Source of the DNA: a virus
IMG/VR virus record: IMGVR_UViG_3300017917_003175
Span: 1-54,140 of that record
DNA length: 54,140 nucleotides
Strand: one strand, 5' to 3'
The translations under genes were made by a program, and so were the position numbers. The notes beneath the pieces are model-generated. The model made no database searches. It saw only the letters and a program-made list of their open reading frames with translations, and was not told the origin of the DNA. Below, piece by piece: positions 6,407-48,984 of this stretch. Each line of letters begins with the position of its first letter. Positions within the stretch are counted from its first letter, which is position 1.

Positions 6407-7676
6407 TTATAATATCCAATGTAAACGGACTTTGCTTATACATCATTTCCATTAGCAAATTAAAATTATGATATGTAGTTTCAAGCATTAAATCACTGCG
6501 TAAACCATTGTTTTTATTTATTAAATTTTCAAAACTTAGGTCACTCAGCCTATCTATCTCCTCAACAACTTTTTTAATCCTTTCATCATAATCTAAAATG
6601 TTATCATAAGACTCGTCTATAAAAAAATCAAAAGTTTTAAAACCTAAGTCTTTTAAATATTTAAGTGTAAATGGTATACTTATAATAATAAAAGGCTTTC
6701 TATGAAAGATTGCTTTCCAAGTTTTTTCTGAAACAAACTCTAGATAATTAGTACCTTCATCGGTATAATCTACAAAAGTTTCAAAAATTATATTTATTTC
6801 GGAGTGATGATAAAAATACTGCAATGATAAAGGATATGGATTAGTTATTTCTTCATCCAATATACAAGGTAAAGTTTTTACCCATTCATTTATTTTATCA
6901 CTCTTTTTGTTTATTTTAACAATATTTTCAACTAAATAATCTTCAACTGGTTCAGTACAATTTTTTCCATAATTTAGTGAAAAAGTATAATGAGTTTTAT
7001 TTATAATATCTCTGTCCACTAATTCACATATAAATTTAAATCTTTTTTCAGTAAATCGTCTTATAAAACAAGAAAATATTTTAATATAATTGGCATCAAA
7101 ATATTCATAATTTTTTTGATTTATTCCTAAACTTTCAGAAATTCTATCTACAATTGCTGTTTTATATTCATATAACCATTTATCCATGTAAGTCATATTA
7201 GCTTGAGGAAATGATTTTTTTGCTTTCGTTATATCTATTTTACTTTGTAATAATAAATAATGTGATTTTTGTACATCTATATCATTCACTATTTCACAAA
7301 CTGCTAGTTCACGGTAATAATTTTTTGATGTAAATTTACTGTTTTGATCAATTGGCCAACATTTACTTGTGTTAAAATTCATTTCATCAATTATAGTTTC
7401 TTTTACATCAAAACATCGTAACATATTTCTTATAATATTTGAACCAAACCTATCATCAAAACAAATACCATTTAATACATAAATTAGTTTTTTATTTTTA
7501 ATTTTTTTAATTTTTTCACATACTTCATCAGAGATTAACAAATTAGGCAAATATATAAGTGCTTTATCATTTACATATTCGTCGATGTTAACAAAATCTA
7601 TTAAATTAACATTAAAAAAATATTTTAGATACGTGCTTTCGTCAGTAAAATGTTCAGGAGTAAAATATATTTTCAT
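6399..7676 (-). CDS. Glycosyltransferase-like protein, SEKTWK family, copy 1
   Basis: A 425-aa protein with a conserved C-terminal block: SEKTWKAIFHRKPFIII near residue 315, then LGFKTFDFFIDESYDN near 345-360. The layout (S/T-E-K, a 'kPfii' strand, then a DESYD loop) recalls the donor-binding half of GT-B fucosyl- and exostosin-type glycosyltransferases. The N-terminal half is divergent and AT-rich. A paralogue lies at 23212-24447. It sits among head genes, so it could glycosylate a virion protein or host surface glycan. It has no Shine-Dalgarno sequence; TCTAAATA ends 6 bases before the ATG, so the mRNA may be leaderless. Function is inferred from one conserved block only. Confidence 0.45.
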   Translation of the reverse strand: MKIYFTPEHFTDESTYLKYFFNVNLIDFVNIDEYVNDKALIYLPNLLISDEVCEKIKKIKNKKLIYVLNGICFDDRFGSNIIRNMLRCFDVKETIIDEMNFNTSKCWPIDQNSKFTSKNYYRELAVCEIVNDIDVQKSHYLLLQSKIDITKAKKSFPQANMTYMDKWLYEYKTAIVDRISESLGINQKNYEYFDANYIKIFSCFIRRFTEKRFKFICELVDRDIINKTHYTFSLNYGKNCTEPVEDYLVENIVKINKKSDKINEWVKTLPCILDEEITNPYPLSLQYFYHHSEINIIFETFVDYTDEGTNYLEFVSEKTWKAIFHRKPFIIISIPFTLKYLKDLGFKTFDFFIDESYDNILDYDERIKKVVEEIDRLSDLSFENLINKNNGLRSDLMLETTYHNFNLLMEMMYKQSPFTLDIIND

Positions 7677-7693
7677 AAGAATATTTAGAAAAT

Positions 7694-8122
7694 TTATTTT
7701 TTGTAAAATAAATCATTTTCACTTATAACACGAAAGGTATAACCTTGTGTTTTACAATATGCCATTGCACTTGCCCATTTGGCATGATTAATAGCAACGA
7801 TTGCTCTATCTTTTGCACTAGCCACTTTACTTTCTATAATACTTTGTTTTTTAGGTTTAATTTCAACGACTTCAGCAAGTTGTTTACCATATCTATTTTG
7901 ATAAACAACAAAAAAATCTGGAATATAATTGGCTATTTTTCCAGTCAATGGGTGCCTGTATGGTATAGCCATTGCCTCACTAGCCCAATGTAATACATTT
8001 TTATTATTGTCACAAAACATCATAAAGGTCATTTCCCATCCTGACCTATATTTTGGTTTATGTTTACCTATATATTTTTCAGGATTTTTAGGTGTATAAA
8101 TGCCTTGCGCCCATTTTTTCAT
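7694..8122 (-). CDS. 4: Head completion protein gp4
   Basis: The 142-aa product matches the T4 gp4 family. The N-terminal KYRSGWEMTFMMFCDNN is followed by a conserved W-A-S-E, PYRHPLTGKIANYIPDFFV and a VEIKPK motif. The Y-P-D-F plus E-x-K arrangement is the PD-(D/E)XK nuclease-like core known in this family, which acts when the packaged head is finished before tail joining. T4 gp4 is about 150 aa, so the gene is full length. Start and upstream stop overlap as TAATG with the 120-aa gene, implying translational coupling. Confidence 0.85.
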   Translation of the reverse strand: MKKWAQGIYTPKNPEKYIGKHKPKYRSGWEMTFMMFCDNNKNVLHWASEAMAIPYRHPLTGKIANYIPDFFVVYQNRYGKQLAEVVEIKPKKQSIIESKVASAKDRAIVAINHAKWASAMAYCKTQGYTFRVISENDLFYKK

Positions 8123-8484
8123 TACTGGACAACATTCCTAGCTACTGCTTGATTTGGTTGCGGTACTGCTCCTACACCATATAAACTTGTTCTTGATTTA
8201 AAACTGTTTAGGTAATAACATAATACTTTTGTTAATTCTAGTTTATTACCTGTTCCTTTTATTTGATCTAATAATACCAAAGCATCAATATTAGCCTCTT
8301 GTGCTATTCTAAAAAATACTGCTGTAAAGTTTTTTGCTATATTTTTCGTGTCACAAACACTTGTAAAATAACCATAAACAATATCATATTGGTCAGATGG
8401 TATAATAAGATTTTGACTATAAAAACTATCAAATATTCTTACAGTTTGATCTAAACTAGTTCTATTATCAATAATTTTTGCCAT
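8122..8484 (-). CDS. Small conserved structural-region protein (120 aa)
   Basis: I do not recognise a named family with certainty. The protein is mostly helical (SLDQTVRIFDSFYSQ, ALVLLDQIKGTGNKLELT) with a short Pro/Gln/Ala tail. It lies between the tube-like gene and gp4 and is coupled to gp4 by a TAATG junction, so it is probably expressed late and concerned with tail or head assembly. No catalytic motif or membrane segment is visible. Confidence 0.5.
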   Translation of the reverse strand: MAKIIDNRTSLDQTVRIFDSFYSQNLIIPSDQYDIVYGYFTSVCDTKNIAKNFTAVFFRIAQEANIDALVLLDQIKGTGNKLELTKVLCYYLNSFKSRTSLYGVGAVPQPNQAVARNVVQ

Positions 8485-8490
8485 TTAATT

Positions 8491-9714: not shown

Positions 9715-9732
9715 AGGAACCTTTCTTAATTA

Positions 9733-10377: not shown

Positions 10378-10395
10378 GTTGTTTCTCCTATCTTA

Positions 10396-10403
10396 TATTT
10401 ATC
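10396..10403 (-). promoter_or_regulatory. Late promoter GATAAATA for gp19
   Basis: The minus strand reads GATAAATATAAG with AGGAG and the gp19 ATG following, 19 bases from box to ATG. Confidence 0.75.
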
Positions 10404-10413
10404 TTTGTAAAAA

Positions 10414-13971: not shown

Positions 13972-14021
13972 TTTGTTCTTCCTTTTGTAAAATTATGAGG
14001 TTTACTACCTGTTTATAAAGT

Positions 14022-15176: not shown

Positions 15177-15200
15177 GTGTCACTCCTGTGATAGTTGAGT

Positions 15201-18061: not shown

Positions 18062-19777
18062 GTGCCACGCCTTAGCCTTTATCGTCCAAATAAACAAAAT
18101 GATTATCGGTTCTTAGATAGGAGCATTAGTGAAATGCTTACTGTTGGGGGTACTGACTTATACATACATAAATATTTAGGGCCTACTAATCAAGGACAAA
18201 GTGTTGATTATACACAACCACAATATGACGCACTTGATCCGACTAATATACAGGATTTACTATTTTTAGAAAATAGAGATAGGACATATGATCCAAATGT
18301 TTATAGATTACGTGGACATTACAATGTACAAAATCTAGATTTTGATTTAAGTCAATTTGGGTTATTTTTAAATAATGACATTATATTTATTACAGTTCAT
18401 TATAATGACATGATTGAAATTGTTGGACGTAAACTTATGGTAGGTGATGTAATAGAGTTGCCACACCTATTAGATTATAATCCATTAAAAGAAACAATTC
18501 CAGTTGCACTTAAACGTTTTATGCAAATTACTGATGCAAATTATGCAAGTGAAGGGTTCAGTCAAACTTGGTATCCACATCTGTGGCGTATAAAATGTGA
18601 ACCACTAGTTGATAGCGAAGAATTTAGTCAAATTCTAAATGAACCAATTAATTTAGATAATTACTTAGGTGTTTGGGACGCAACAAAAATATATCCTGCA
18701 GGATATGTAATTAGCTTCGGTGATAAAAATTACATAAGTAAAATTGAAGTTCCAGCAGGCATTGTGCCACCAAACGCAACATATTGGGAACTTGACACAT
18801 CACAAGACTTAAGAGATATTTTGGCAACATATAATAGAAACATTGAAATTAATAATGCTCAATTAGAAGAAGCAGCACGTATATTACCAAAAACAGGTTA
18901 CGATACAAAAAATCTATATATTGTTCCAACATATGGAACTTTTGAATCTAATACAGAATTATCAGGAAAAAATAATCAACCAGCACCACCTACTTTTGTA
19001 ATTACAGGATCGGATGGAGCACCTAGTACTACTGCAACAGGAGTAGTAACTTATTATCATAGCAAAAAATATAAAGTACCTAGTGTTGGCATAAAAATAA
19101 GCAAAAAATTACTAGACAATTTAAAATTATTATCTTTAAAAGTAAATAACCCACATCATTTTGACAAATTTAATCAAGTCAATATAGAAACATTTCAATT
19201 ACGACCTGAACGAACAGATACAAATTCAGGTAGAGTATCAGGGGATTATGGATTCACAGTTTTTAGTTTGGGTCCTGTTACAGGACCATATGGTACAGCA
19301 GACAATATGTATGCAACAGCAGATCAAGATCCTAGTGCTCCAGGATTTACTGCTGAAATTACACCACAGATGGACTATAGAGCCGACTGTGATCCTAGAT
19401 TCCAATATATATCACGTAGCAGTCCTAGATCATTTGGTTATAGTATAGGGCTTAATACAGGAGACGGTACTGCACCTAATGGATATCCCAGTGGTGCAGG
19501 CATTGCTTTCCCACAAAATCCACAAGTTGGTGATTATTTCTTACGTATTGATTACTTTCCAAATATATTATATCGTTGGGACGGAAGACTATGGGTAAGA
19601 TTAAGTACTAATATAAGAACACAAACTGGCTTTACATCACAAGATAAATCATTGTTGTCATTGTTTATAAATGATGACGCAACAACGACATTAACTGATG
19701 GTACGACTGTTCCACAATCACAACCATTAAGTTCTATGTTGCAACAAGCACCAACCCCAATACCACCTGAAGTTTAA
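18062..19777 (+). CDS. 14: Neck protein gp14-like, enlarged
   Basis: A 571-aa protein whose N-terminal 170 residues follow the T4 gp14 pattern: LDRSISEMLTVGGTDLYIHK, then FGLFLNNDIIFITVHYNDM and GRKLMVGDVIELPHL (compare FGMQVQDEVTLSI and KEGDLIYFP in T4). gp14 joins head to tail. T4 gp14 is 256 aa, so over 300 residues are additional. Residues about 204-243 (VWDATKIYPAGYVISF, then ATYWEL) look like a carbohydrate-binding module 5/12 fold. The C-terminal part has an NPQVGDYFLRIDYFPNILYR beta module. The start is GTG with GGAG six bases upstream. gp15 follows after 2 bases. Confidence 0.75.
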   Translation: MPRLSLYRPNKQNDYRFLDRSISEMLTVGGTDLYIHKYLGPTNQGQSVDYTQPQYDALDPTNIQDLLFLENRDRTYDPNVYRLRGHYNVQNLDFDLSQFGLFLNNDIIFITVHYNDMIEIVGRKLMVGDVIELPHLLDYNPLKETIPVALKRFMQITDANYASEGFSQTWYPHLWRIKCEPLVDSEEFSQILNEPINLDNYLGVWDATKIYPAGYVISFGDKNYISKIEVPAGIVPPNATYWELDTSQDLRDILATYNRNIEINNAQLEEAARILPKTGYDTKNLYIVPTYGTFESNTELSGKNNQPAPPTFVITGSDGAPSTTATGVVTYYHSKKYKVPSVGIKISKKLLDNLKLLSLKVNNPHHFDKFNQVNIETFQLRPERTDTNSGRVSGDYGFTVFSLGPVTGPYGTADNMYATADQDPSAPGFTAEITPQMDYRADCDPRFQYISRSSPRSFGYSIGLNTGDGTAPNGYPSGAGIAFPQNPQVGDYFLRIDYFPNILYRWDGRLWVRLSTNIRTQTGFTSQDKSLLSLFINDDATTTLTDGTTVPQSQPLSSMLQQAPTPIPPEV

Positions 19778-21150: not shown

Positions 21151-21168
21151 ATTTCAATAGTATATAAT
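21140..21168 (+). promoter_or_regulatory. Promoter for Nudix gene, possibly leaderless
   Basis: TTGTAA, 17-base spacer, TATAAT (21163-21168). The expected start, 7 bases beyond the -10 box, is the A of the ATG at 21175. Confidence 0.55.
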
Positions 21169-23139: not shown

Positions 23140-23211
23140 TTTTTTCTCCTTATAAAAGTGGGTTCTATTCCACTACGCGGCGGGGACCGCATAAGTCATT
23201 TAAACTTTTAA

Positions 23212-26883: not shown

Positions 26884-26916
26884 ATCCATATTTATTAATT
26901 CTAAATCTTTAAAATT

Positions 26917-31702: not shown

Positions 31703-31799
31703 AACTTTATTTAGTTAAAGCTATATTGCAATATTTTTTCAAAAAATTTTATTACAATAGATAATCATTAAGGTTAATATTAAATTACAAACACAATTG

Positions 31800-33814: not shown

Positions 33815-33843
33815 TAATTATTTAACTAATAATATATAACCAT

Positions 33844-33872
33844 AAAAAAAGGCCCATAATTGGGCCTTTTTT
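33844..33872 (-). terminator. Rho-independent terminator after the 123-aa structural gene
   Basis: GGCCCATAATTGGGCC stem-loop (33851-33866) flanked by runs of seven A and six T, so it can act on the minus strand just past the stop at 33889. It isolates the 123-aa gene as a monocistronic unit. Confidence 0.92.
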
Positions 33873-33888
33873 AGATGCAAACTAATAA

Positions 33889-35885: not shown

Positions 35886-35893
35886 TATTTATC
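35886..35893 (-). promoter_or_regulatory. Late promoter GATAAATA abutting the start codon (leaderless candidate)
   Basis: GATAAATA on the minus strand with its last base six positions before the A of the ATG at 35880. T4 late transcription would start on or next to that A. Confidence 0.55.
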
Positions 35894-38975: not shown

Positions 38976-38978
38976 GTA

Positions 38979-38984
38979 ATTATA
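38979..38984 (-). promoter_or_regulatory. -10 box TATAAT abutting the primase start (leaderless candidate)
   Basis: Minus strand CATGTTATAATTAC followed directly by ATGATG. No convincing -35 is seen, and the identical 14-base word precedes the gene at 48950. Confidence 0.5.
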
Positions 38985-39020
38985 ACATGATACTACGTAA
39001 AATAAAAGTATGTTGGATAC

Positions 39021-39722
39021 TTATCTAGCCAATATATTGGTTATAGCGCCTGTATTACTAGTGAATTGCATTCTAACATATGGATGGTATCCACTAATTG
39101 TATAACCTTTGGTATCACTATTATTAGCATAAGCAGCGGTAGTAATAGGATACCAATCTCCATTTACAATTGTTGACCCTTCAATTAATACATCACCATT
39201 ATACTGGTAAAAACTAGTTTGAATAGTAAGTATTGGATTGTCTTCTGTATTAATAACACTACTATAATAAGTATTAGCGTTTGGTAATACATTTGAAATG
39301 CTATTATTAGGATCAAGGTTGGGAAATGGTTGTCCAGTAGGAATAGTTACATTACTAGATGGTACAAAACTAGGAAGTACACTATTAACAATATTTAAAT
39401 CACCCCTTGCGCCTGCATTTTGATCAACAAACACAGGGTAGTCAAATTCTCCAACTGGTATTTCAAGTGAGTAGTGTGCTAATTGTGGTATAAAATCTTC
39501 AATATCAGCAGCATTAAGTTGAATCGCTGCTATACCAGTTGCAGGTAATTGTAAAGTTAATGCTTTTTGTAACAATACTTCTGTGCCATTGTTATTAATA
39601 ATTCTAAAGGTAATAGATTTACCTGTAATATCAACTGGTTTTTGTTCTTGATTTAAAAATTGAAATTGTATTTGATTGTCCACACCTTTATGCAAGGTTA
39701 GTGTTTTGGCATAAACTGGCAT
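39021..39722 (-). CDS. Baseplate/fibre-type structural protein with BppU-like N-terminus
   Basis: I place the start at ATG 39722, preceded by AGGAGATAT; an upstream in-frame ATG at 39800 lacks a ribosome site. The 233-aa product begins with YAKTLTLHKGVDNQIQFQF, KPVDITGKSITFRII and QLPATGIAAIQLNAADI, the beta-sandwich pattern of BppU-type N-terminal domains in baseplate and fibre proteins. The C-terminal 110 residues (ILTIQTSFYQYNGDVLIEGS, YHPYVRMQF) look like a second beta domain. It is a lone structural gene beside replication genes. Confidence 0.6.
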   Translation of the reverse strand: MPVYAKTLTLHKGVDNQIQFQFLNQEQKPVDITGKSITFRIINNNGTEVLLQKALTLQLPATGIAAIQLNAADIEDFIPQLAHYSLEIPVGEFDYPVFVDQNAGARGDLNIVNSVLPSFVPSSNVTIPTGQPFPNLDPNNSISNVLPNANTYYSSVINTEDNPILTIQTSFYQYNGDVLIEGSTIVNGDWYPITTAAYANNSDTKGYTISGYHPYVRMQFTSNTGAITNILAR

Positions 39723-39788
39723 ATATCTCCTCGCAGATGTTCCTGATATTAAGACAACAATTTGTCTTTGAGTGTAAATGAAAACTGA

Positions 39789-39837
39789 TGTACTGTACAC
39801 AAATATTTTCCTCTGTTGTATTTAGCAGGAAAATATT
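39789..39837. promoter_or_regulatory. Operator-like palindromes between divergent genes
   Basis: The 39723-39889 gap between divergent genes carries two symmetric elements. TGTAC-T-GTACA lies at 39789-39799. A perfect 11-base inverted repeat, AATATTTTCCT (39802-39812) and AGGAAAATATT (39827-39837), has a 14-base loop. They could bind a repressor or form a hairpin. No poly-T tract follows, so this is not a standard terminator. Confidence 0.45.
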
Positions 39838-39889
39838 AATTTATATAAACGGGCAAATTAGATTAAATAAAAACTGTTACATAAAATTT

Positions 39890-40739: not shown

Positions 40740-41307
40740 TATTTTCTTCTAATAAATTCATATGTACTACAACTAAATGTGCATAGGCAATAGCATGACT
40801 TTTCTTAAATACATATTCGTCTTGGTTCTTATCCCATATTGTTTTAGCAATTTCTGAATAAGATTGACCTAACAAGTGTCTTTTACCAGGACGTATTACT
40901 GCTAAAAACATTGCTAGTCTTGTTATAGAATTTACTGGTTCAGGCATTCTATTTAGAATATCATATTGATTATTTAAATGTATTAATTTTTCAACAAATT
41001 TTCTATGTTTTAAATTATCCCAATTTGGTTCTTTCATGAGTTTTATTAAGTGATCATTATCTTTTACAAGTCCATAAACATGAACATTTAAGAAGTCTAA
41101 TTTAAAATAACCTCTATCTTCAGCAGATTTATAATCTAATGCTGATAAGTCATTTATTGGATCATATGGAATATTTGTTACATAAATACCAGTAGGATGT
41201 TTTTTAATTGTTTTATCATTTCTAATGCTAGCAGGTATGTGATTTATTATTTTTAATATGTCATCACGGTTAGCATAATCAATATCAATGTCACCTTTAA
41301 AATTCAT
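40726..41307 (-). CDS. DnaE-like mini-protein
   Basis: A 193-aa protein that carries, in order, short blocks resembling conserved motifs of bacterial DNA polymerase III alpha (DnaE): DIDIDYANRDDI at 6-17 (compare PDFDIDF-x-x-x-RD); HPTGIYV at 37-43 (KHAGGVVI); SAEDRGYFKLDFLNV at 61-75 (V-x-x-G-L-x-KxDFLGL); LAMFLAVIRPGKR near 131-143 (ALVALFRPGP); and FKKSHAIAYAHLVV near 167-180 (FNKSHAAAYA). The rest of the 1,100-aa polymerase is absent. Homology is an inference from these blocks; whether Asp8 and Asp10 act as metal ligands is unknown. It is coupled to the exonuclease and deformylase genes. Confidence 0.55.
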   Translation of the reverse strand: MNFKGDIDIDYANRDDILKIINHIPASIRNDKTIKKHPTGIYVTNIPYDPINDLSALDYKSAEDRGYFKLDFLNVHVYGLVKDNDHLIKLMKEPNWDNLKHRKFVEKLIHLNNQYDILNRMPEPVNSITRLAMFLAVIRPGKRHLLGQSYSEIAKTIWDKNQDEYVFKKSHAIAYAHLVVVHMNLLEENNGIS

Positions 41308-41849
41308 ATCAATTTTAATTTTTTATATGCCTGTTGTACAACTATAACTTGTCTCTCTGCATCTTCAATAGCCTTATGTGTTGTTTTATAAGAACCACTG
41401 TTTAATTTTACATTTGCTATTTCATACAATGTTCTAGTATCACGTACAGTATAGAATGGCCATGGAATAGGATTAGGATATTCTGTAAGTGTTTGTCGCA
41501 TACCAGTTTCACAAGCCACTATATCAAATGCTGCTCCATTGCTCCATACAGCACGACGATTCCAACAAAATTTATACAATGTCTCCATACAATGTCTAAA
41601 TGATGTACGCCCATTATCTCCTAAAGCTTCTTCAAGTGCTGCTGTACTTTGTTCACTCCACCATCTTAATGTATCTTCATTAATAATTCTATGATATATT
41701 TCTGTTTGGTCTTCTATAGTAGGACGTAGTTCTAACTTTTCTACGATTCCATTTTCTCTAGGGTTAAACGACACTGCACCGATTGTAAGAATGGTGCAAA
41801 ATGGACTTGTATCAAGTGTTTCTAAATCTATCATTACATCTAGTGTCAT
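41304..41849 (-). CDS. DEDDh 3'-5' exonuclease (DexA-like)
   Basis: The 181-aa product has the Exo I motif MIDLETLDT (Asp7, Glu9), an Exo II region SNGAAFDIVACE and an Exo III region THKAIEDAERQ with the His/Asp pair of the DEDDh class. The length and fold type fit T4 DexA or RNase T-type exonucleases, which degrade single-stranded DNA or RNA from the 3' end. It overlaps the next gene by 4 bases (ATGA-type). Proofreading or host-DNA degradation is likely. Confidence 0.85.
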   Translation of the reverse strand: MTLDVMIDLETLDTSPFCTILTIGAVSFNPRENGIVEKLELRPTIEDQTEIYHRIINEDTLRWWSEQSTAALEEALGDNGRTSFRHCMETLYKFCWNRRAVWSNGAAFDIVACETGMRQTLTEYPNPIPWPFYTVRDTRTLYEIANVKLNSGSYKTTHKAIEDAERQVIVVQQAYKKLKLI

Positions 41850-41880
41850 TCAAATATTACCTTAAAATAATATATAGCTA

Positions 41881-42570
41881 TTAATTATTGCTATCCCAAA
41901 TATTGTCTAATACTTTTACCTCACTTATTATATTACTATCTAAGTAATTAAGCAACAGTGCAGGGCGAATCATATCAGCATCATTTGGCATACTACTATG
42001 CAATAGTCTGCAATTATACAATAATATATCCCCTTTATTAAGTTTAGGGCGTATACAATGTTGCATAAAATAGTTATCATAATATCCTTGATAACATAGT
42101 TTTATACTAAAGTCTTTCAATTGACTACTAGGAACTAAGCCTGTAGCACCATTATTTTCATCAAGATCAAAAAATGGAATAATACATTGTATACCTAATA
42201 ACTCTTTATTATAATTATACTTTTTAAAACGATGGGGTGTGTCAATATGTGGATTGACCCAAGTGCTTTTTGGTTTTAAAAAAACAATATCACTTGCATA
42301 AAGTAAAGCACTTTTTAAATATTTAAAAACTTCGTATTCAACTAGTTTATTAATTTGCTGTACTTCATACCAATCTGTTACAAGTTGACTCCACCAAACG
42401 CTTATATCTTGTAAATCCTTGATATTTTCTTTTTCAGCATATTGTTTAAGTGAACTACTAGCACGTACAGGATATGTTGTATCAAGCTTATTATATAGGT
42501 CGTCCAATATATTATAAGGAATTAAATTATTGACAATTACATATCCAGACCCTTCTACTAATTCATTCAT
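41881..42570 (-). CDS. Fe(II)/2-oxoglutarate dioxygenase, PhyH-like
   Basis: A 229-aa double-stranded beta-helix oxygenase. The metal triad candidates are the H-x-D in NPHIDTPHRF near residues 107-109 and the distal His in LLHSSMPNDADMIRP near 191, where the Arg 11-12 residues later would bind 2-oxoglutarate. The sequence GIQCIIPFFDLDENNGATG is typical of phytanoyl-CoA-type hydroxylases. The substrate is unknown. It lies in a run of tightly packed early genes. Two other oxygenases of a different subtype lie at 45212 and 45839. Confidence 0.8.
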   Translation of the reverse strand: MNELVEGSGYVIVNNLIPYNILDDLYNKLDTTYPVRASSSLKQYAEKENIKDLQDISVWWSQLVTDWYEVQQINKLVEYEVFKYLKSALLYASDIVFLKPKSTWVNPHIDTPHRFKKYNYNKELLGIQCIIPFFDLDENNGATGLVPSSQLKDFSIKLCYQGYYDNYFMQHCIRPKLNKGDILLYNCRLLHSSMPNDADMIRPALLLNYLDSNIISEVKVLDNIWDSNN

Positions 42571-42773
42571 AATAATTTTAATTTATAAAAGGTATAATTT
42601 TTTTCATCAGTAAACACAAATTCTACTTTTGCTTTATAATCTATTTCAGTAGGTCTATAATATTTCCAAACAAAATCTTTGTCCATAAGTAATCCATCGT
42701 TTATTAACATGTCTCTATAACCCAAAGCTTCATAAACTGAATTAAGGTTACATATAATAAGTGATTTTACCAA
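42567..42773 (-). CDS. Small protein of unknown function (68 aa)
   Basis: The first codon is TTG at 42773 and no ribosome site is seen, so the start is uncertain. The product (SVYEALGYRDMLINDGLL, DYKAKVEFVFTDEKNYTFY) is mixed alpha/beta. It overlaps both neighbours by a few bases and is therefore probably translated within the operon. No function can be suggested. Confidence 0.4.
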   Translation of the reverse strand: MVKSLIICNLNSVYEALGYRDMLINDGLLMDKDFVWKYYRPTEIDYKAKVEFVFTDEKNYTFYKLKLL

Positions 42774-42940
42774 TTGGAGTTTTCTTGATTACTTTCTTCT
42801 AGTCTTGTGTAATTTAAAACATTACCCACACCATATTGAGCCTCACCTAATATTTTTGCAGCATAATCATTTTCAGCATAAACAATTGTATTTGCTGTTT
42901 GATAATCATTTAATCTTACCCATAATTGATATTTGTACAT
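42767..42940 (-). CDS. Small conserved protein (57 aa)
   Basis: I choose ATG 42940 (MYKYQLWVRLND), preceded by AGGA seven bases upstream, rather than the earlier ATG at 42958 inside the previous gene. The product is a short beta-alpha domain, with TIVYAENDYAAKILGEAQYG and GNVLNYTRL. A similar small protein is common in T4-like aquatic phages to my recollection. Function unknown. Confidence 0.5.
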   Translation of the reverse strand: MYKYQLWVRLNDYQTANTIVYAENDYAAKILGEAQYGVGNVLNYTRLEESNQENSNW

Positions 42941-42948
42941 AAATATTC

Positions 42949-43179
42949 CTATAACCATCTTAACATAAATTTTAAATAATCTCGTTCATATCTAAACCGT
43001 ACTTCAATACCTTCACTAATTACTCTCCATCTAGCATGCCGAATAGGTAATTCTATGTTTATACCTAACCAATCCAACATATCATAGTATTTAGATATAG
43101 TAAAATTATCTAAAGGTATTATTATGCCATACCACTTTGATTGTTTTTCATCAAAGTTTTCAATTGGCAACTTATACAT
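42949..43179 (-). CDS. Small protein, paralogue of the next gene upstream (76 aa)
   Basis: The pattern K-W-x-G/D-x-x-x..., LDWLGIN, WRVISEGIEVRFRYERDYLKF parallels the 67-aa neighbour (WAIENFGMQ, FNFRCEKDAIHFALV): an N-terminal strand, a helix with 'W...G', and a C-terminal RDxxxF/KDAxxF helix. The two are probably an old tandem duplication. Function unknown. Confidence 0.45.
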   Translation of the reverse strand: MYKLPIENFDEKQSKWYGIIIPLDNFTISKYYDMLDWLGINIELPIRHARWRVISEGIEVRFRYERDYLKFMLRWL

Positions 43180-43184
43180 AATAT

Positions 43185-43388
43185 CTATATATTAACTAAC
43201 GCAAAATGTATAGCATCCTTTTCACACCTAAAATTGAAATCCATATAATCTTCGGTTGAGTAAGTCGTAAATTTATCTCCTTGCATTCCAAAATTTTCTA
43301 TAGCCCATATACATATGTCATCCCATTTAGTGATTGTATCATAATTTTTCCAATATATTCTTATCGAATATTTAAAGTCAGTAACCAT
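43185..43388 (-). CDS. Small protein, paralogue of the next gene downstream (67 aa)
   Basis: YSIRIYWKNYDTITKWDDIC, AIENFGMQGDKFTTY and MDFNFRCEKDAIHFALV form a small alpha/beta domain like that at 42949. It overlaps the zinc-finger gene by 11 bases. No known function. Confidence 0.45.
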   Translation of the reverse strand: MVTDFKYSIRIYWKNYDTITKWDDICIWAIENFGMQGDKFTTYSTEDYMDFNFRCEKDAIHFALVNI

Positions 43389-44088
43389 TTTCTTGTAATA
43401 TTTGTTTTACTGTAGATACTTCATCTGTATTTCTAATAAATTTTAATGCCCAGGCTTCAGGATTAATGTAATCAACAATTAATTTTACTTGAGATTCATC
43501 TAGTGTATCTAAGAATTTTGTCCCACTTGAAGATTGATATAACATCCATGGACTTATTTTTCCTTTTGTTATGTTATAACAAATTTTATTAAAATTTCCA
43601 TACCTTAAAATGTCTTTACTTAATATTCCTTGTTGTTCTGATAACATATTACATGTTTCAAAACTACGATTTATTGCATCTAATGGATTTTCTCTTAGCA
43701 AATAATCTTTTATAAAATCAGTGTAAACACTATCATTACACCAAGTATGTATTTTAATATTGTTTTTTAATAACCAATCTAAATATCGATTTGGTTGCAC
43801 AACGTTTACATCAACACAATAATTTCCAAATTTTACAAAAGCTATATACACACTACTTTTTATAAAATCCGTATAGTCACGTTTTTTTGAATTTGTATTT
43901 TTACTTAGAAATTCTACCCAAGCTTGATATCCTATGCGATTTCCGTGTTTGTCTTTATCCTGCCATCTACGCTTTTGTTCACATACATGATTATAAATAG
44001 TAGATTCACGTATAAAACTTCTACCACAAAAATCACAACTTAGCTTTTTAGTTTCCTCTGTCTTTTTCATACTGCAAAATGTCTTCAT
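43378..44088 (-). CDS. Zinc-finger protein of the replication region (236 aa)
   Basis: An N-terminal zinc finger is clear: CDFCGRSFIRESTIYNHVC (C-x2-C-x12-H-x-C, residues 18-36) followed by a basic EQKRRW. The rest is helical, with conserved-looking blocks RYLDWLLKNNIKIHTWCNDS, RYGNFNKICYNITKGKISPW and a C-terminal INPEAW. I recall similar proteins beside clamp-loader genes in aquatic T4-like phages, but no function is known. DNA binding is inferred from the finger. The gene overlaps its neighbour by 41 bases; a second ATG at 44070 would shorten this. Confidence 0.6.
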   Translation of the reverse strand: MKTFCSMKKTEETKKLSCDFCGRSFIRESTIYNHVCEQKRRWQDKDKHGNRIGYQAWVEFLSKNTNSKKRDYTDFIKSSVYIAFVKFGNYCVDVNVVQPNRYLDWLLKNNIKIHTWCNDSVYTDFIKDYLLRENPLDAINRSFETCNMLSEQQGILSKDILRYGNFNKICYNITKGKISPWMLYQSSSGTKFLDTLDESQVKLIVDYINPEAWALKFIRNTDEVSTVKQILQENGY

Positions 44089-44635
44089 CTGTTATGAGTG
44101 AATTTAATGTATCAATGTCTTCTAATTTAAGTGTTGGATAAATTTCAGCAATGTAAAATTTACGTTTTTGATTTTTTACATAGTCCCTAGCTAAATTATC
44201 AATAGACTCAACACTAAGTGTTTTATATATCTTTTTATAATAATCTAATAAATCTTGTTTTTTAGCTGACTCTTTTAATAAAGATATACGTTCTTTTATA
44301 TGAGGAATAAATTGATGAAATTGTTTTCCCAATCCTGGACTGGCAGCACATAACATAAGCCACTGAAGTTTTGGAAATTTTTGAACATTTTCATTGAACA
44401 AATATTTGTTTGCATGGTATTCTGTACTTAATACATAATAACTTTGCAATTCAACATTACCTTTTACACAACTCATCCATAATATTAACAAATATGGAAC
44501 AAATTTTCGCTGTTGTTCGGTAGTTAATCTATCGTAATAAGAGTAATCTTTTTTATCCAAAGCATTTAGTGCTTCAAATAAATCAAAATCAATCTTAGAA
44601 AACTTTTCTTCACTTGTTAGTTTTTTACTTGACAT
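44048..44635 (-). CDS. Clamp-loader small subunit candidate (gp62-like)
   Basis: A 195-aa helical protein (T4 gp62 is 187). The block QWLMLCAASPGLGKQFHQFI resembles the T4 gp62 segment NYLMAAVPRGKRYGKWAKL. The N-terminus FDLFEALNALDKKDYSYYDR, a central LLILWMSCVKG and C-terminal leucine-rich helices fit aquatic T4-like clamp-loader small subunits as I recall them. In T4, gp62 works with gp44 to load the gp45 clamp; neither gp44 nor gp45 is in the window. The call is tentative. Confidence 0.45.
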   Translation of the reverse strand: MSSKKLTSEEKFSKIDFDLFEALNALDKKDYSYYDRLTTEQQRKFVPYLLILWMSCVKGNVELQSYYVLSTEYHANKYLFNENVQKFPKLQWLMLCAASPGLGKQFHQFIPHIKERISLLKESAKKQDLLDYYKKIYKTLSVESIDNLARDYVKNQKRKFYIAEIYPTLKLEDIDTLNSLITDEDILQYEKDRGN

Positions 44636-44636
44636 A

Positions 44637-45137
44637 TCAAAAAACCATTGAATAATCTACAATCTCACAATTACGACTTATTTCCTTTACAAAATATACA
44701 CATCTAGGTTTATTACCATCGTCAATTGGAACACATAAAAACTGTCCGTTTCTTAGTCTGGGAGCGTACCAAGTTACATCATGGTAGATATCAACTATTT
44801 CAATAGGTAAAAAAGAAGGACTAAATGATGATAATGGATTAAATTCAAATGCACTAAAACCCCTATCATTGATACTTGTAAGTGGTAATGTTTCTAGGTC
44901 TCCGTGATCTTTTTCACCAATTAATATTTGCCAATCAACTGGCATTTTTATTTTACTGTTTCCAATTTTTAATACCAGTGCAGGAGAACTGAATGATTCT
45001 AAAAATATTAGTGGAATATAATGGTAATCAACATTTTGTGGATTACTATTATCCAAAATAGCAAATCTAACATCGTCTACTTCCTCAGGAAGGTTCTCTA
45101 AATTATATTTTGTATTATCTAATAATAGTATATTCAT
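44637..45137 (-). CDS. Conserved protein of unknown function (166 aa)
   Basis: Beta-rich, with HYIPLIFLESFSSPALVLKI, MPVDWQILIGEKDHGDLETL and CVYFVKEISRNCEIVDYS. I recall the type from aquatic T4-like phages but not a function. The promoter (TTGCAT, 17 bases, TAAACT) is placed so that transcription would start on the ATG at 45137. It is the first gene of a coupled operon with the clamp-loader-like and zinc-finger genes, suggesting a replication link. Confidence 0.5.
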   Translation of the reverse strand: MNILLLDNTKYNLENLPEEVDDVRFAILDNSNPQNVDYHYIPLIFLESFSSPALVLKIGNSKIKMPVDWQILIGEKDHGDLETLPLTSINDRGFSAFEFNPLSSFSPSFLPIEIVDIYHDVTWYAPRLRNGQFLCVPIDDGNKPRCVYFVKEISRNCEIVDYSMVF

Positions 45138-45143
45138 GATTAT

Positions 45144-45172
45144 AGTTTATCATTTTTCTTCTTTGGATGCAA
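45144..45172 (-). promoter_or_regulatory. Promoter for the 166-aa gene, start codon at +1 (leaderless candidate)
   Basis: Minus strand TTGCAT (45167-45172), 17-base spacer, TAAACT (45144-45149). +1 predicted 7 bases beyond the -10 is the A of ATG 45137. A TATAAT also overlaps at 45139-45144. Confidence 0.5.
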
Positions 45173-45211
45173 TAGATTAGGGTTTAATTTACATTTATTT
45201 TTTAAAATACA

Positions 45212-45820
45212 TTAAATTATTAAATGTTTATACCTATCTAAAAAAGTGTTATAAGTAAGTATACCTTGTATATCAGTATCCAAAACTAATGAAAATAATA
45301 ATCTTGTGTTTTCAATATTTTCAACACTATGGTAATATTGAACATTATAGGCATGCCAAGTTTTTATTGGTATACAGGTTTTAAAATTTATTTCTAAATC
45401 CTCGTATCTTGCGTCTTGTGCTTTTGATAAATCTAAATTAGTTCTTCCAGTTTTATAGATGACTGTTTCAACATTACATCCTCCTGATTTCATTAAATAA
45501 TTTATAGCTATTAACCTTCTACGATCACAGTGTGGGGGAATACATACAGTACCATTACCATATACATTTTTCAGTTTTCCTATTATTGCAGTAAAATTAC
45601 AATTAAAATAAGATGAATAAATTTCGTTCAATTCCAATTGCATATCATTAGGTAAAATAGCATTAACTCTACCATAAACATGGCTGCCAACTCGGATAGA
45701 ATTTCCATACCATGACTGTACTCCATTCATACCTATTAGGTCATCAGGAACTTCTTCACTTATTAATAATGCTTGATTAAAAATATGTTCAGGTAATTGT
45801 GGAATATTCAAATATACCAT
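45212..45820 (-). CDS. Fe(II)/2-oxoglutarate oxygenase-like protein, tandem copy A
   Basis: The 202-aa product has H97-x-D99 in IPPHCDRRRL, a distal H164 in QYYHSVENI and R173 nine residues later, the metal triad and 2-oxoglutarate Arg pattern of the cupin oxygenases. The intervening INYLMKSGGCNVETVIY and TWHAYN form the jelly-roll strands. Substrate unknown. The neighbour at 45839 is a paralogue, separated by 18 bases. It has no clear own promoter and probably uses that of the UvsW operon. Confidence 0.7.
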   Translation of the reverse strand: MVYLNIPQLPEHIFNQALLISEEVPDDLIGMNGVQSWYGNSIRVGSHVYGRVNAILPNDMQLELNEIYSSYFNCNFTAIIGKLKNVYGNGTVCIPPHCDRRRLIAINYLMKSGGCNVETVIYKTGRTNLDLSKAQDARYEDLEINFKTCIPIKTWHAYNVQYYHSVENIENTRLLFSLVLDTDIQGILTYNTFLDRYKHLII

Positions 45821-45838
45821 TTAAAATTTTTTATGATT

Positions 45839-46483
45839 TTATAATAAGGTGATTATATTTTTTATAAAATGATTATAGGTGACAACTTTTTCTTTATCAC
45901 TCAATATAAGAAAAAACACATATCGGTCACTTTGTAAGTTTTCTACACTATGAAATTCATCAGCATTAAAGCAATACCATTTATGAATCGGAACACATTC
46001 TCTAACATCTACTATAAGATTTTCATAATAAATTATTTTGTCATTATAGGGATTATTTATATTTTTTTTTGTAATTGTATTGTTACTTATTTTTTTACTA
46101 TAGGTAACCGTTTCTACATGATCTCCACCTGGAATAATTAAAAAATTTATACCTAAACATCTATTTTTGTCCCTATGTGGAGGAAATGAACAGTTTATAC
46201 TATGAATGTTTGAAAATTTTCTAATACAAAAATTAATATCCTCAGAAAAATATTCCCTATATAAATTTTTTAATTGTTTTCTTGTATTATAACTAAATAC
46301 ATTACCTAATGCTTCATATTTACCAATTTTTTGGTTATTGTTAAATTTCAAGGCTTTCGTCATATTTAAGAAATCATCATATTGTTTATTATGTATGAGA
46401 TTTTTATGTTTTTTAGCAGCAAATAAGCATTCTTGGATTGCGTTTTCAGGTAACATTGGAAGATCTAAATAAACTAAACTCAT
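45839..46483 (-). CDS. Fe(II)/2-oxoglutarate oxygenase-like protein, tandem copy B
   Basis: A 214-aa paralogue of copy A: H103-x-D105 in PPHRDKNRCL, distal H178 in DEFHSVENL and R187, with matching GINFLIIPGGDHVETVTY and PIHKWYCFN. Both keep all four key residues, so both may be active, perhaps on different substrates. The start overlaps the UvsW stop as ATGA, so it is coupled to UvsW. Peptide, nucleotide and lipid substrates are all possible. Confidence 0.7.
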   Translation of the reverse strand: MSLVYLDLPMLPENAIQECLFAAKKHKNLIHNKQYDDFLNMTKALKFNNNQKIGKYEALGNVFSYNTRKQLKNLYREYFSEDINFCIRKFSNIHSINCSFPPHRDKNRCLGINFLIIPGGDHVETVTYSKKISNNTITKKNINNPYNDKIIYYENLIVDVRECVPIHKWYCFNADEFHSVENLQSDRYVFFLILSDKEKVVTYNHFIKNIITLL

Positions 46484-47937
46484 AAGTAATTCAACTTTTC
46501 TATTGTAAACGGATACTTAGCTTCATTATAATAAGATTTACGCTGTGTCAAATGACGTTTTGCAAACTTACAATTACTTGTTATATCCCAGATTTGTACG
46601 AAGTTTTTATCTTCTGCTTTTCTAATACCTCTTCCAATACTTTGGATAACTCTAACAAAGCTTTTTCCGGGTTCCAAAAGAACCAAATTAAAAATCCTAG
46701 GAATATTAATACCCACACTGGCCACACCATAAGTCGCCACAATAACCTTGTTATCGCTAGTCGCAATTTCATCGTATTCTTCTTTTCTTTCTGTCAATTT
46801 AGTTTCTCCACTTACGAAAACACTGTTAGGTATTTTTGTTACTAAGTCTTTACCTGCCATTACTCGATCTATAAGAATTAATGTATTCCCTGTCTGTTTT
46901 ATTTTATCAACTAATTGAGCAATAGTATTTATTCTATTTTGATTTTCTAGTAAGTGTTTTAATTCAGTATGATAATTTGTAAACTCTAAATTGTCCTGTA
47001 ATTGTACGATATTAACATGACATTGTGCTAGCACACCTTTGTCTTGCAATTCACTTGCACTAAGCTTACCTATTACATTACCTAATGATACATATAATGC
47101 TTGTGCTTCATATAATGCTTTTGGTATAGTACCAGTAAGTCCCCAACGTATAGGAACTTTACTAAACACTCCTGTTAATAATGTTTTAAGGGCATCAGCT
47201 TTTACCATGTGTACTTCATCAACCATTACACATACAACATCTTCTATGAATTCGTGTATTGTAAACTCAGCGGTACCAGATTGTGTGTCTTTAAGTAGAT
47301 TATTTAAACTTTGCCATGTACATATCGTATGTTGTTTATTAAATTCTTTGCGATCACCAAAATATACACCAACATCAAGTCCTACATTACGATAGTCATC
47401 TTCGGTTTGTGTAACAAGACTTTTATTCGGTACAATAATAATACTACGACCATAATCTTGTACACTATAGCTAAGTGCAGCAGTAGTAATTGTTTTACCT
47501 GCTCCAGTAGCAACTTCTTGTATTGATTGTGGATTAGCTAAAAAGTTATTAATGACCTCAATTTGATAATCACGTAATACGATTGGTTCATTTTCTTTTG
47601 GATGACCTTTTGGCCATTTATACTCTATAAACGTATGTTCGGACACTTTGCATAAGTTGAATTCTTGTGTGTATGCTCGTTGGTCCTCAAGTGTAATATT
47701 ATATCCAGTTTTTTCCAATACAGGAAGTATTTCGGGAAGTAAGTTTATATATGTGCTTCCCCCTAAACTAAAGTAACTTACTTTACCATTCCATCTACCT
47801 AGTCTGACACTTGGACTATATCTAGCTCCAGGCTTTTCATACTCAAACATCTTCATCAATGTTTTTCGTTCAGAAAGTTCTAAGCCTTCAATCTTAACAT
47901 TTACTTCATCTTTAATGACTAGTTTACATTGTCTCAT
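46480..47937 (-). CDS. uvsW: UvsW-type DNA helicase
   Basis: A superfamily 2 helicase of about 485 aa (T4 UvsW is 502). Motif I is VATGAGKT near residue 142, motif II MVDEVHMV (DEVH) near 240, motif III GLTGTIPK, and motif VI QSIGRGIRKAED. The N-terminal RYSPSVRLGRWNGKVSYF is typical of the UvsW substrate-binding domain. It unwinds branched intermediates and R-loops and helps shift T4 replication from origin- to recombination-dependent. An ATG at 47937 is preferred to the TTG at 47943. It is coupled by overlap to the 336-aa gene. Confidence 0.92.
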   Translation of the reverse strand: MRQCKLVIKDEVNVKIEGLELSERKTLMKMFEYEKPGARYSPSVRLGRWNGKVSYFSLGGSTYINLLPEILPVLEKTGYNITLEDQRAYTQEFNLCKVSEHTFIEYKWPKGHPKENEPIVLRDYQIEVINNFLANPQSIQEVATGAGKTITTAALSYSVQDYGRSIIIVPNKSLVTQTEDDYRNVGLDVGVYFGDRKEFNKQHTICTWQSLNNLLKDTQSGTAEFTIHEFIEDVVCVMVDEVHMVKADALKTLLTGVFSKVPIRWGLTGTIPKALYEAQALYVSLGNVIGKLSASELQDKGVLAQCHVNIVQLQDNLEFTNYHTELKHLLENQNRINTIAQLVDKIKQTGNTLILIDRVMAGKDLVTKIPNSVFVSGETKLTERKEEYDEIATSDNKVIVATYGVASVGINIPRIFNLVLLEPGKSFVRVIQSIGRGIRKAEDKNFVQIWDITSNCKFAKRHLTQRKSYYNEAKYPFTIEKLNYL

Positions 47938-47939
47938 AT

Positions 47940-48950
47940 TCAATCTACCGAAAAAATAATCTGTTTTTTAATGTTGTATAAACTTTTTTTCATTGCAGTT
48001 GATTGTGTATGAAATTGTAAAAGTACTGGATAATTATAATTATGTGCTAGAGTAATATCAGAGTACCTATATTCTGATAAAGTTTTAATAGCCACAGAGT
48101 TTTTTTGCAATTCAGTATTTATGATATTTTTTTCAACAACCTTGTAAAAGCTTTTACTGAAAAAAATTACATCACATTTAATTTTAATTAACCAATCAAT
48201 AATTTTATCATAGTTATCAATATGACACTCATAGTTAAATGAATTAGCGAACCTTAATTCTTCATTCAATAAACTTTCGTGAATTTTTATACCATATTCA
48301 CCCAAAGTTTTAGCAGTTAACATGTCAAGTTTTAATTTCAAATTTTTGGTTGCTAAATATAATGGTTGGTTACAAGCAGCAATATAATAATGTGTTCCTG
48401 TTTTATACAGTGTTGGATCGTATGTATAGCTTAATTTATGATTTATGTCGTCTAATAACTTTAAAGATACCTCGCATAACTTTACATCACTGTAAAACTT
48501 TTTTGCAACTGAACATATAAATTTAAATGAGTGGGTACTAAATTCGCTAATATAAAGTTTATTTTCTTTATCCCATATAAAATAATTATGTTTTTGTTTT
48601 CTAAAATATTCAAGGAATTTTTTATTAAAAGGATTTCTAAAAAATATTTTGTTGTCTATTATCTTAATATAGGTCTGCGTAAACTCGTTGCTACTAGGAA
48701 TGATTTGTGTATAAGCAAAGGGTAATTTAATTAAATCCATGTAATTAAGTTGATTTTTATTTAATTGTTTTTTATATTTTTTGATAATAAAGTTTAACAA
48801 GTTTTCTTGATTCTTTGTAAGTTTTTTTGATCCAAAAGTAATAATATAATGTAGGTTTGAAACAAAATGCAAATCAGTTTTAGACAGTCGCATAACACCT
48901 GAGTTCAGGTATATAATTACATTTTCTTTCGTAGTTAATGAATAGTACAT
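47940..48950 (-). CDS. UvsW-coupled protein of unknown function (336 aa)
   Basis: No catalytic motif is visible. The segment IKIIDNKIFFRNPFNKKFLE followed by YFIWDKENKLYISEF resembles the accessory domain that precedes SNF2-type helicase cores, but no helicase motif follows. The C-terminus has alternating strands and helices (IDWLIKIKCDVIFFSKSF). It sits directly before UvsW with a 4-base overlap. The start may be ATG 48950 (leaderless, see promoter) or ATG 48893, which has AGGTG before it. Confidence 0.45.
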   Translation of the reverse strand: MYYSLTTKENVIIYLNSGVMRLSKTDLHFVSNLHYIITFGSKKLTKNQENLLNFIIKKYKKQLNKNQLNYMDLIKLPFAYTQIIPSSNEFTQTYIKIIDNKIFFRNPFNKKFLEYFRKQKHNYFIWDKENKLYISEFSTHSFKFICSVAKKFYSDVKLCEVSLKLLDDINHKLSYTYDPTLYKTGTHYYIAACNQPLYLATKNLKLKLDMLTAKTLGEYGIKIHESLLNEELRFANSFNYECHIDNYDKIIDWLIKIKCDVIFFSKSFYKVVEKNIINTELQKNSVAIKTLSEYRYSDITLAHNYNYPVLLQFHTQSTAMKKSLYNIKKQIIFSVD

Positions 48951-48956
48951 TAAGTA

Positions 48957-48984
48957 ATTATAACATGGTTAAAAAACTAAGCAA
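48957..48984 (-). promoter_or_regulatory. Promoter for UvsW operon, start codon at +1 (leaderless candidate)
   Basis: Minus strand TTGCTT (48979-48984), 16-base spacer, TATAAT (48957-48962). +1 seven bases on is the A of ATG 48950. The word CATGTTATAATTAC is identical to that before the primase. Confidence 0.6.

What the first reader, a model, noticed from the sequence alone, without database searches (positions are those of the whole stretch)
7676..48962. A class of probably leaderless phage genes
In several genes without a Shine-Dalgarno sequence the promoter box sits at a nearly constant distance from the ATG. Early type: TATAAT or TAAACT places +1 on the A of the ATG at 21175, 45137 and 48950, and on the second ATG (38972) of the primase. 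Late type: a box ending in TAAATA ends exactly 6 bases before the ATG at 7676, 26883, 31702 and 35880, and about 5 before 33814. A given six-base A/T word at one fixed position should be rare even in this AT-rich DNA (a rough estimate is 0.35 to the sixth, under 0.2 percent per gene). Neighbouring late genes have leaders with AGGAG. Leaderless translation is not described for T4 genes to my knowledge.
Basis: partly seen in the sequence, partly recalled or inferred. Interest (0 to 1): 0.7.

Follow-up and report, generated by a model that had tools for sequence, protein, structure and literature searches.

The report
Leaderless late genes in T4-type phages
In this uncultured T4-type phage and its relatives many genes have their promoter placed so that the messenger RNA should begin at the start codon itself, with no leader and no ribosome-binding site, an arrangement that phage T4 was not found to use.

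Summary
In the window a T4-type late box (TAAATA) ends 4-5 nt before the ATG in 4 of 65 called genes, against 3 of 2006 other ATGs. In 11 contigs of the same phage group (984 non-redundant genes) it ends 4/5/6 nt before the ATG in 22/45/9 genes; 99 others have it 15-32 nt upstream, 58 of them with Shine-Dalgarno-like words. T4's late box spans -13 to -6, so the peak puts +1 on the A of the ATG. Near-box genes lack such words (4 of 76) and orthologues switch between the two states. Early genes do the same with sigma-70 boxes: the primase keeps -10, 6 nt, start codon in 32 of 34 distinct relatives, 5 as ties. T4, Aeh1, S-PM2 and Atu_ph07 show none; cultured HTVC008M shows 11, all exactly 5 nt, and XacN1 10. 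Best reading: a class of leaderless genes driven by T4-type late and sigma-70 promoters, not found described in print. No 5' end has been mapped and the host is unknown.

The parts
7682..7687 (-). late box TAAATA, 5 nt before ATG at 7676 (425-aa protein, no family match)
   Evidence: the 5 contigs with a hit do not align at the N-terminus, so conservation is untested
31708..31713 (-). late box, 5 nt before ATG at 31702 (106 aa, phrog_17776)
   Evidence: box 4-6 nt before ATG in 4 of 13 distinct relatives, the other 9 have no TAAATA within 35 nt
35886..35891 (-). late box, 5 nt before ATG at 35880 (81 aa, virion structural protein phrog_11854)
   Evidence: 33 of 36 distinct relatives are leadered (32 with SD-like words), 3 are leaderless; 3 changes on the primase tree
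33819..33824 (-). late box, 4 nt before ATG at 33814 (150 aa, no PHROG match)
   Evidence: box 4-6 nt before ATG in 17 of 20 distinct relatives by rule; the other 3 are box-5-ATG one codon on (L052), box-4-GTG (L064) and ATG 8 nt from the box (L046) (read)
33844..33866 (-). intrinsic-terminator-like hairpin (GGCCC stem) and T-run upstream of the 33814 promoter
   Evidence: stretch 33840-33876 folds at -16.7 kcal/mol, z -3.6; the pattern scan did not list it
26889..26894 (-). possible late box, 5 nt before the second ATG (26883) of the NAD-dependent epimerase ORF
   Evidence: ambiguous, conservation not testable
21163..21168 (+). -10 TATAAT, 6 nt before ATG at 21175 (NUDIX protein); -35-like TTGTAA at 21140-21145, spacer 17
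   Evidence: same spacing in 2 of 7 distinct relatives
38979..38984 (-). -10 TATAAT, 6 nt before the conserved start 38972 of the DNA primase
   Evidence: offset 6 is the best -10 position in 27 of 34 distinct relatives and tied best in 5 more
45144..45149 (-). -10 TAAACT, 6 nt before ATG at 45137 (phrog_11279); -35 TTGCAT at 45167-45172, spacer 17
   Evidence: read by eye, 11 of 13 distinct relatives have a word with at least 4 of 6 matches to TATAAT exactly 6 nt before ATG, one at 5, one at 7
48957..48962 (-). -10 TATAAT, 6 nt before ATG at 48950
   Evidence: read by eye, a -10-like word lies 5-6 nt before an ATG in the 8 contigs with a hit (7 distinct; two of them aligned only from residue 20, one with two adjacent ATGs)
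48995..49018 (-). terminator-like hairpin and T-run upstream of the 48950 promoter
18062..19777 (+). contrast case: GTG-start gene with GGAG leader whose orthologues are leaderless with ATG
   Evidence: box-5-ATG in 9 of 9 contigs with a hit (7 distinct)
39021..39800 (-). contrast case: leadered GTG-start gene (late box and AGAGGA leader) whose orthologues in one subclade are leaderless with ATG

Best explanation
These are true promoters placed so that transcription starts on, or within one or two bases of, the A of the start codon. The mRNAs are therefore leaderless and are translated without a Shine-Dalgarno sequence, presumably by ribosomes that bind the 5'-terminal AUG. Late ones use a T4-type late box ([A/C]TAAATA), presumably read by host RNA polymerase with a gp55-like sigma; early ones use host sigma-70 promoters (-35, about 17 nt, -10, 6 nt, ATG or rarely GTG). 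They coexist with ordinary leadered genes that use the same boxes, and genes move between the two states in evolution as the short leader is lost or gained. Shown: placement of promoter words, two modes of spacing, conservation, loss of SD words, AUG bias, switching. Inferred: the exact 5' end, the polymerase and the translation route.
For: (1) TAAATA at offset 5 is the most significant hexamer/position upstream of 859 genes in six contigs (38 against 3.7 expected), ahead of SD words; in 984 non-redundant genes of 11 contigs 22/45/9 at offsets 4/5/6, 21 in all at 7-15, then a leadered hump. (2) Each of the 11 contigs shows it (p <= 1e-4 against internal ATGs). (3) T4's box lies at -13 to -6 (PMC1524935, passage); in leadered promoters of T4 (28) and of three outgroup phages (97) the 6th base after the box is A in 57% and 70%, the place of the ATG's A. 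(4) A stands before the box in 70% of near, 71% of leadered boxes and 18% of TAAATA inside genes. (5) SD-like words in 4 of 76 near-box, 58 of 99 leadered and 347 of 791 other genes. (6) 73 of 73 near-box starts in six contigs are ATG, against 1283 of 2084 candidate NTGs (62%) and 59 of 64 leadered SD starts. (7) Terminator within 60 nt: 9 of 66 near-box, 2 of 100 leadered, 14 of 683 other genes. (8) g39800: of 29 distinct relatives 14 leadered, all GTG with SD words, and 14 leaderless, all ATG without; g18062: leaderless with ATG in 9 of 9 contigs with a hit, SD-led with GTG in the window. (9) In 13 of 34 distinct primases an in-frame TAG stands directly before the start. (10) Early boxes: mean -35 match 4.26 of 6 at 19 sites against 2.72 for 1251 TATAATs; with a -35 required, 6 genes at offset 5, 21 at 6, 0 at 7, and a hump at 26-35. 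(11) gp55-like sigma in G001 and G002.
Against: No transcript end or protein has been measured. The offset varies 4-6, so some mRNAs may have a 1-nt leader or a shifted start. In this group's own 87 leadered promoters the 6th base after the box is A in 49%, no more than its neighbours (46%, 47%), so +1 rests on T4 and the outgroups. The G two bases before the box is weaker in near boxes (32%) than in leadered ones (57%). A T4 gp45 query found no clamp in the group. Exceptions: L046 has 8 nt between box and ATG, L064 uses GTG at a late box, 2 of 34 primases have no best box at 6, 21175 keeps the exact spacing in 2 of 7 distinct relatives. The start-codon count was made around genes called on ATG, which favours ATG. 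The coupling of start codon to leader rests on few independent changes; the sign test cannot reach 0.05. A generic sigma-70 scan of 38900-49100 found no more sites than shuffles (64 against 74.5), so early sites rest on spacing and conservation.
Confidence: 0.86

Rival explanations
1. Very short leaders: the promoters are real but initiation falls 2-5 nt upstream of the ATG, so translation uses a minimal 5' UTR rather than a strictly leaderless mRNA.
For: Offsets vary 4-6 (22/45/9); this group's leadered promoters show no sharp A at the 6th base; start-site choice by polymerase is flexible (general knowledge).
Against: Sharp peak at offset 5; in the 38 offset-5 genes the base before the ATG is T in 61%, A in 18%, G in 3%, so a purine start just upstream is mostly unavailable there; the AUG bias fits leaderless translation.
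Confidence: 0.08
2. TAAATA/TATAAT near the ATG is not a promoter but an A/U-rich translation element or a by-product of AT-rich DNA or overlapping stop codons; transcripts come from upstream.
For: The DNA is AT-rich (GC 0.24-0.37 per 2 kb of the window); 57 of 66 near-box genes have no terminator found within 60 nt upstream.
Against: Of the 64 A/T hexamers at offset 5, TAAATA has 45 and the next (16) is its own shifted form ATAAAT; offsets 0-3 hold only 3 genes; near boxes share the A before the box with leadered promoters; excess of terminators upstream and -35 elements at early sites.
Confidence: 0.03
3. The boxes are promoters but serve another start codon; the ATG is misannotated.
For: 38975 and 26889 show that the first ATG can be wrong.
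Against: Protein similarity starts at the box-proximal codon across relatives, with an in-frame stop directly upstream in 13 of 34 distinct primases; annotators of HTVC008M chose the same ATGs for the 9 genes that lie in the stretch read.
Confidence: 0.02

Closest known systems
Leaderless genes of bacteria (Zheng et al. 2011, PMC3160421; abstract lines and passages seen)
   Same: -10-like signal about 12 bp upstream of the start codon instead of an SD, read as leaderless
   Different: There cellular genomes with sigma-70-like boxes; here many cases use a T4-type late box, structural and packaging genes among them
T4 late promoters (PMC1524935, PMC2988020; passages seen)
   Same: box core TAAATA with A or C before it (C as in Aeh1); gp55-like sigma in two relatives
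   Different: T4's are leadered: 0 of 240 called T4 genes have the box at offsets 4-6, 28 have it at 16-35
Leaderless phage mRNAs, such as lambda cI (passage in PMC9031893); PMC5312081 says in passing that phage transcripts 'are often leaderless', citing a study of E. coli ribosomes (passage)
   Same: phage mRNA starting at AUG
   Different: No passage seen describes a T4-type late class; the telomere-phage paper PMC4488713, whose search row shows 6 uses of the word, was seen only as a listing
Pelagibacter phage HTVC008M (NC_020484) and Xanthomonas phage XacN1 (AP018399)
   Same: late box exactly 5 nt before ATG in 11 HTVC008M genes; 10 XacN1 genes at 4-6
   Different: The HTVC008M record assigns it to Kyanoviridae. 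How XacN1 is related to this group was not tested; 3 Xanthomonas phages are among the 60 primase hits, names not all listed
Pseudomonas phage PA5oct (NC_071039), among the nearest named phages by primase
   Same: primase has TTGACA-17-TATAAT-6-GTG; the gene before it (gp262) has late box-5-ATG
   Different: no genome-wide excess (1 gene at offsets 4-6, 1.13 expected)

Membership tests
leaderless genes | promoter -10-type box about 10-12 bp upstream of the start codon | tested here: met
leaderless genes | no Shine-Dalgarno | tested here: met
   SD-like words in 4 of 76 late and 0 of 19 early near-box genes
leaderless genes | AUG strongly preferred | tested here: met
   73 of 73 late ATG; early 21 ATG, 2 GTG; GTG exceptions: L064 and 4 of 34 primases
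leaderless genes | mRNA 5' end at the start codon | not testable with these tools
   needs dRNA-seq or 5' RACE
T4-type late promoters | TATAAATA-type box | tested here: met
   core TAAATA; A (70%) or C (20%) before it, close to leadered boxes (71%, 14%); the outermost T of TATAAATA is not conserved
T4-type late promoters | no -35 element | not tested
   only the 10-14 bases before the box were profiled
T4-type late promoters | gp55-like late sigma encoded | tested here: met
   phmmer with T4 gp55: G001 E 4.5e-6, G002 E 5.8e-8; no hit in the window (a fragment), G003, G004 or G007; the follow-up profile rounds failed
T4-type late promoters | gp45 sliding clamp | tested here: inconclusive
   T4 gp45 query hit only T4 and P-SSM2 among 12 records
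sigma-70 promoters (early type) | -35 and -10 with a spacer of about 17 nt | tested here: met
   mean -35 match 4.26 of 6 at 19 sites against 2.72 for 1251 TATAATs; 6 of the 19 match only 2-3 of 6

The most novel reading that the evidence does not exclude
In a wide set of T4-type phages late transcription yields two translation classes from one promoter type, SD-led and leaderless, and the phage biases the cell toward leaderless initiation during infection, for instance through its own initiator-like tRNA or ribosomal protein bS21, both carried by the 352-kb relative.
Probability: 0.12. Interest if true: 0.88.

Novelty: new variant of a known kind. Interest (0 to 1): 0.74.

Why it matters
Here a T4-type late programme appears to use leaderless mRNAs for dozens of genes, a terminase and virion proteins among them, beside SD-led genes with the same promoter box. 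Nature supplies orthologous pairs (leadered GTG with SD against leaderless ATG) for measuring what a leader does. It may also explain why a published late-promoter search failed in pelagimyophages (PMC7029224, passages): in HTVC008M 11 boxes sit at the ATG, more than the 9 found 16-35 nt upstream. Gene finders that take the first ATG or look for an SD can misplace such starts, as this primase shows. HTVC008M and PA5oct are cultured, so the idea is directly testable.

Tried and rejected
Host: a primase scan of genome contigs found no relative, and a bS21 scan gave 10 weak hits (38-55%) in Bacteriovorax-like, Bacteroidota and other bacteria; host left open. The exact pattern TATAAATA-N5-ATG has no match in the window, because the window's boxes have other bases before TAAATA; the six-base core was used afterwards. 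The generic promoter/terminator scans were uninformative: no excess of sigma-70 sites, and the hairpin before 33814 was missed. The gp55 profile rounds failed, so only the single-sequence hits stand. No structure was predicted, since the question is about DNA signals.

Considered and rejected: chance in AT-rich DNA; stop-codon overlap (3 genes in all at offsets 0-3); shared ancestry alone (14 different spacers in 34 primases; repeated switches); redundancy between contigs (some, such as G003, G004 and G005, share sequence; counts were de-duplicated, not).

Rows dropped or not taken: only ORFs of at least 60 aa with an ATG start and 60 nt (80) upstream were counted. Of 12 contigs given handles, mostly the largest, 10 were fetched; G010 and G012 were not. 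G003 was used to base 100,000 of 101,504. P-SSM2, Atu_ph07, SCTP-2 and XacN1 were used as 200-kb parts of 252, 490, 440 and 385 kb. Phosso was searched only with the exact pattern, with 0 matches. Orthologue tables hold only relatives whose match begins within the first 12 residues, identical rows counted once. PHROGs was run on 19 of the 79 leaderless genes listed.

Literature: no paper describing leaderless late genes in T4-type phages was found in the seven searches that used the word. The library holds only openly licensed PMC papers; a search for PA5oct with transcription start sites gave none. phiKZ's late TATG motif has its G as +1 (PMC4666361, passages), a different arrangement.
Full report
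WHAT IS THERE. The window is a 54-kb linear virus record with T4-type features: a gp15-like tail-sheath stabiliser and a primase, phrog_47. Named phages with a related primase are large phages such as Phosso, Atu_ph07, SCTP-2, PA5oct and 121Q, all under 60% identity. A scan of viral contigs gave 69 loci with primase relatives, most of them 58-73% identical; ten of their contigs, one of 352 kb, were fetched.

OBSERVATION. TAAATA is followed by 5 bases and ATG at 7676, 31702, 35880 and 26883 (the last a second in-frame ATG), and by 4 bases at 33814. TATAAT or TAAACT is followed by 6 bases and ATG at 21175, 45137, 48950 and 38972. In the window 4 of 65 called genes have the late word at offset 4-5, against 3 of 2006 other ATGs; 2 of 2000 shuffles reached 4.

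GENOME-WIDE TEST. A count of every hexamer at every position upstream of 859 genes in six contigs put TAAATA at offset 5 first (38 against 3.7 expected), above all SD words; TATAAT at offset 6 was 19 against 1.8. Over 11 contigs and 984 non-redundant genes the late word has 3 genes at offsets 0-3, 22/45/9 at 4/5/6, 21 at 7-15, and a broad hump from 16. With a -35 required, early boxes in six contigs give 6 genes at offset 5, 21 at 6, 0 at 7, and a hump at 26-35. Two separated modes, one a few bases wide, are what leaderless and leadered genes would produce.

WHY +1 SHOULD FALL ON THE ATG. T4's late box lies at -13 to -6 (PMC1524935), so the base after five spacer bases is +1. In leadered promoters that base is A in 57% (T4, 28 sites) and 70% (three outgroup phages, 97 sites); in this group's own 87 it is 49%, no more than its neighbours, which leaves a base or two of doubt. 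Near boxes share the A before the box with leadered ones (70% and 71%, against 18% inside genes), though the G before that is weaker (32% against 57%). They avoid SD words (4 of 76, against 58 of 99 leadered and 347 of 791 others). In the six contigs counted they use ATG only (73 of 73, against 59 of 64 leadered SD starts and 62% of candidates), as expected from the AUG preference of leaderless mRNAs in E. coli (PMC9031893, passages); genes were called on ATG, which helps this number. A terminator lies within 60 nt upstream in 9 of 66, against 2 of 100 leadered genes. At 33814 a -16.7 kcal/mol hairpin with a T-run ends 29 nt before the ATG, and in several relatives, read by eye, closer still, leaving little room for a usual leader.

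CONSERVATION AND SWITCHING. Primase: offset 6 is the best -10 position in 27 of 34 distinct relatives and tied best in 5, with 14 different spacers and ATG (30) or GTG (4) as start; in 13 the spacer ends in an in-frame TAG, and only 7 have the upstream ATG of the window (spacer TACATG). 33814: 17 of 20 distinct relatives have box, 4-6 nt, ATG by rule; L052 fits one codon on, L064 has GTG, L046 has 8 nt. 35880: 33 of 36 leadered, 3 leaderless, three changes on a quick primase tree. g39800: of 29 distinct relatives 14 leadered, all GTG with SD words, 14 leaderless, all ATG without, 1 unclassified; two changes on the tree, PA5oct included, too few for the sign test. g18062: SD-led GTG in the window, box-5-ATG in 9 of 9 contigs with a hit (7 distinct). 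In contrast g10377 and g13971 keep an AGGA-type leader in every contig aligned at the start (9 and 8). That leaderless genes are the less strongly translated ones is my inference. Of 19 leaderless genes sent to PHROGs, one is a terminase large subunit, four match virion structural families, one a baseplate wedge and one (early) an exonuclease; the rest match other or no families. Against: 21175 keeps the exact spacing in 2 of 7 distinct relatives; 7676 and 26883 could not be tested.

BREADTH. Called genes with the late word at offsets 4-6 in named phages: T4 0, Aeh1 0, S-PM2 0, Atu_ph07 0 (200 kb), 121Q 1, PA5oct 1, P-SSM2 3 (200 kb, p 2e-4), SCTP-2 6 (200 kb), XacN1 10 (200 kb), HTVC008M 11. 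In HTVC008M all 11 are at exactly 5 nt, against 9 at 16-35. Nine of the 11 fall in the stretch whose annotation I read, and the annotated starts agree in all nine: DNA end protector, head closure, tail tube cap, two baseplate genes, putative tape measure and three others. The divergent pair at 18916/18943 is 26 bp apart, with a late box 5 nt before each ATG. A published late-promoter search failed in pelagimyophages (PMC7029224, passages); boxes placed at the ATG may explain this (inference). PA5oct's primase has TTGACA-17-TATAAT-6-GTG at 145890, two codons inside the annotated start.

MECHANISM. Shown: promoter words at a fixed distance, conserved, and exchangeable with leadered forms; a gp55-like sigma in two relatives. 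Inferred: polymerase with that sigma starts on the A of AUG, and ribosomes begin on the 5'-terminal AUG. Zheng et al. use the same kind of sequence criterion for leaderless bacterial genes (PMC3160421).

NOVELTY. Leaderless genes are known and T4 late promoters are known. Their combination as a genome-wide class was not found in seven literature searches of an incomplete library; one paper says in passing that phage transcripts are often leaderless (PMC5312081). I rate it a new variant of a known kind. The host is unknown and no transcript has been mapped.

Noticed in passing
L085:3576-3650 (G001 303576-303650, minus strand): One of three tRNA-Met(CAT) genes in this part of the 352-kb relative appears to have a C1-A72 mismatch, as initiator tRNAs do (hallmark recalled; read by eye). 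More initiator tRNA is said to favour leaderless translation (PMC9031893).
   Followed up: partly
G001 about 250,000-252,000 (L187): The 352-kb relative carries ribosomal protein bS21 (PF01165) beside ORFs that look like ClpX, Hsp20 and ClpS (these three names by eye, not searched).
   Followed up: partly
L074:3288-3786 and L091:17217-18402: tmRNA near a CTA-anticodon (amber suppressor-like) tRNA in two relatives; L085 alone holds 34 tRNA genes.
   Followed up: no
HTVC008M 18916-18943 (NC_020484): Divergent DNA end protector and head closure genes 26 bp apart, each with a late box 5 nt before its ATG.
   Followed up: partly
121Q 310584, minus strand (KM507819): An ORF of about 3330 codons starts 6 nt after a late box that itself follows a terminator-like hairpin (hairpin by eye).
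   Followed up: no
window 23139-23212: Divergent genes share a GC-rich stretch (GGTCCCCGCCGCG...) in otherwise AT-rich DNA.
   Followed up: no
window 24000-26900: Lowest-GC stretch (0.24 at 24001-26000) with sugar genes: C-methyltransferase and NAD-dependent epimerase.
   Followed up: no
window 50400-51700: Run of small genes, several with AATAAATGG upstream and sigma-70-like promoters some distance from an SD-led start, unlike the leaderless early genes (by eye).
   Followed up: no
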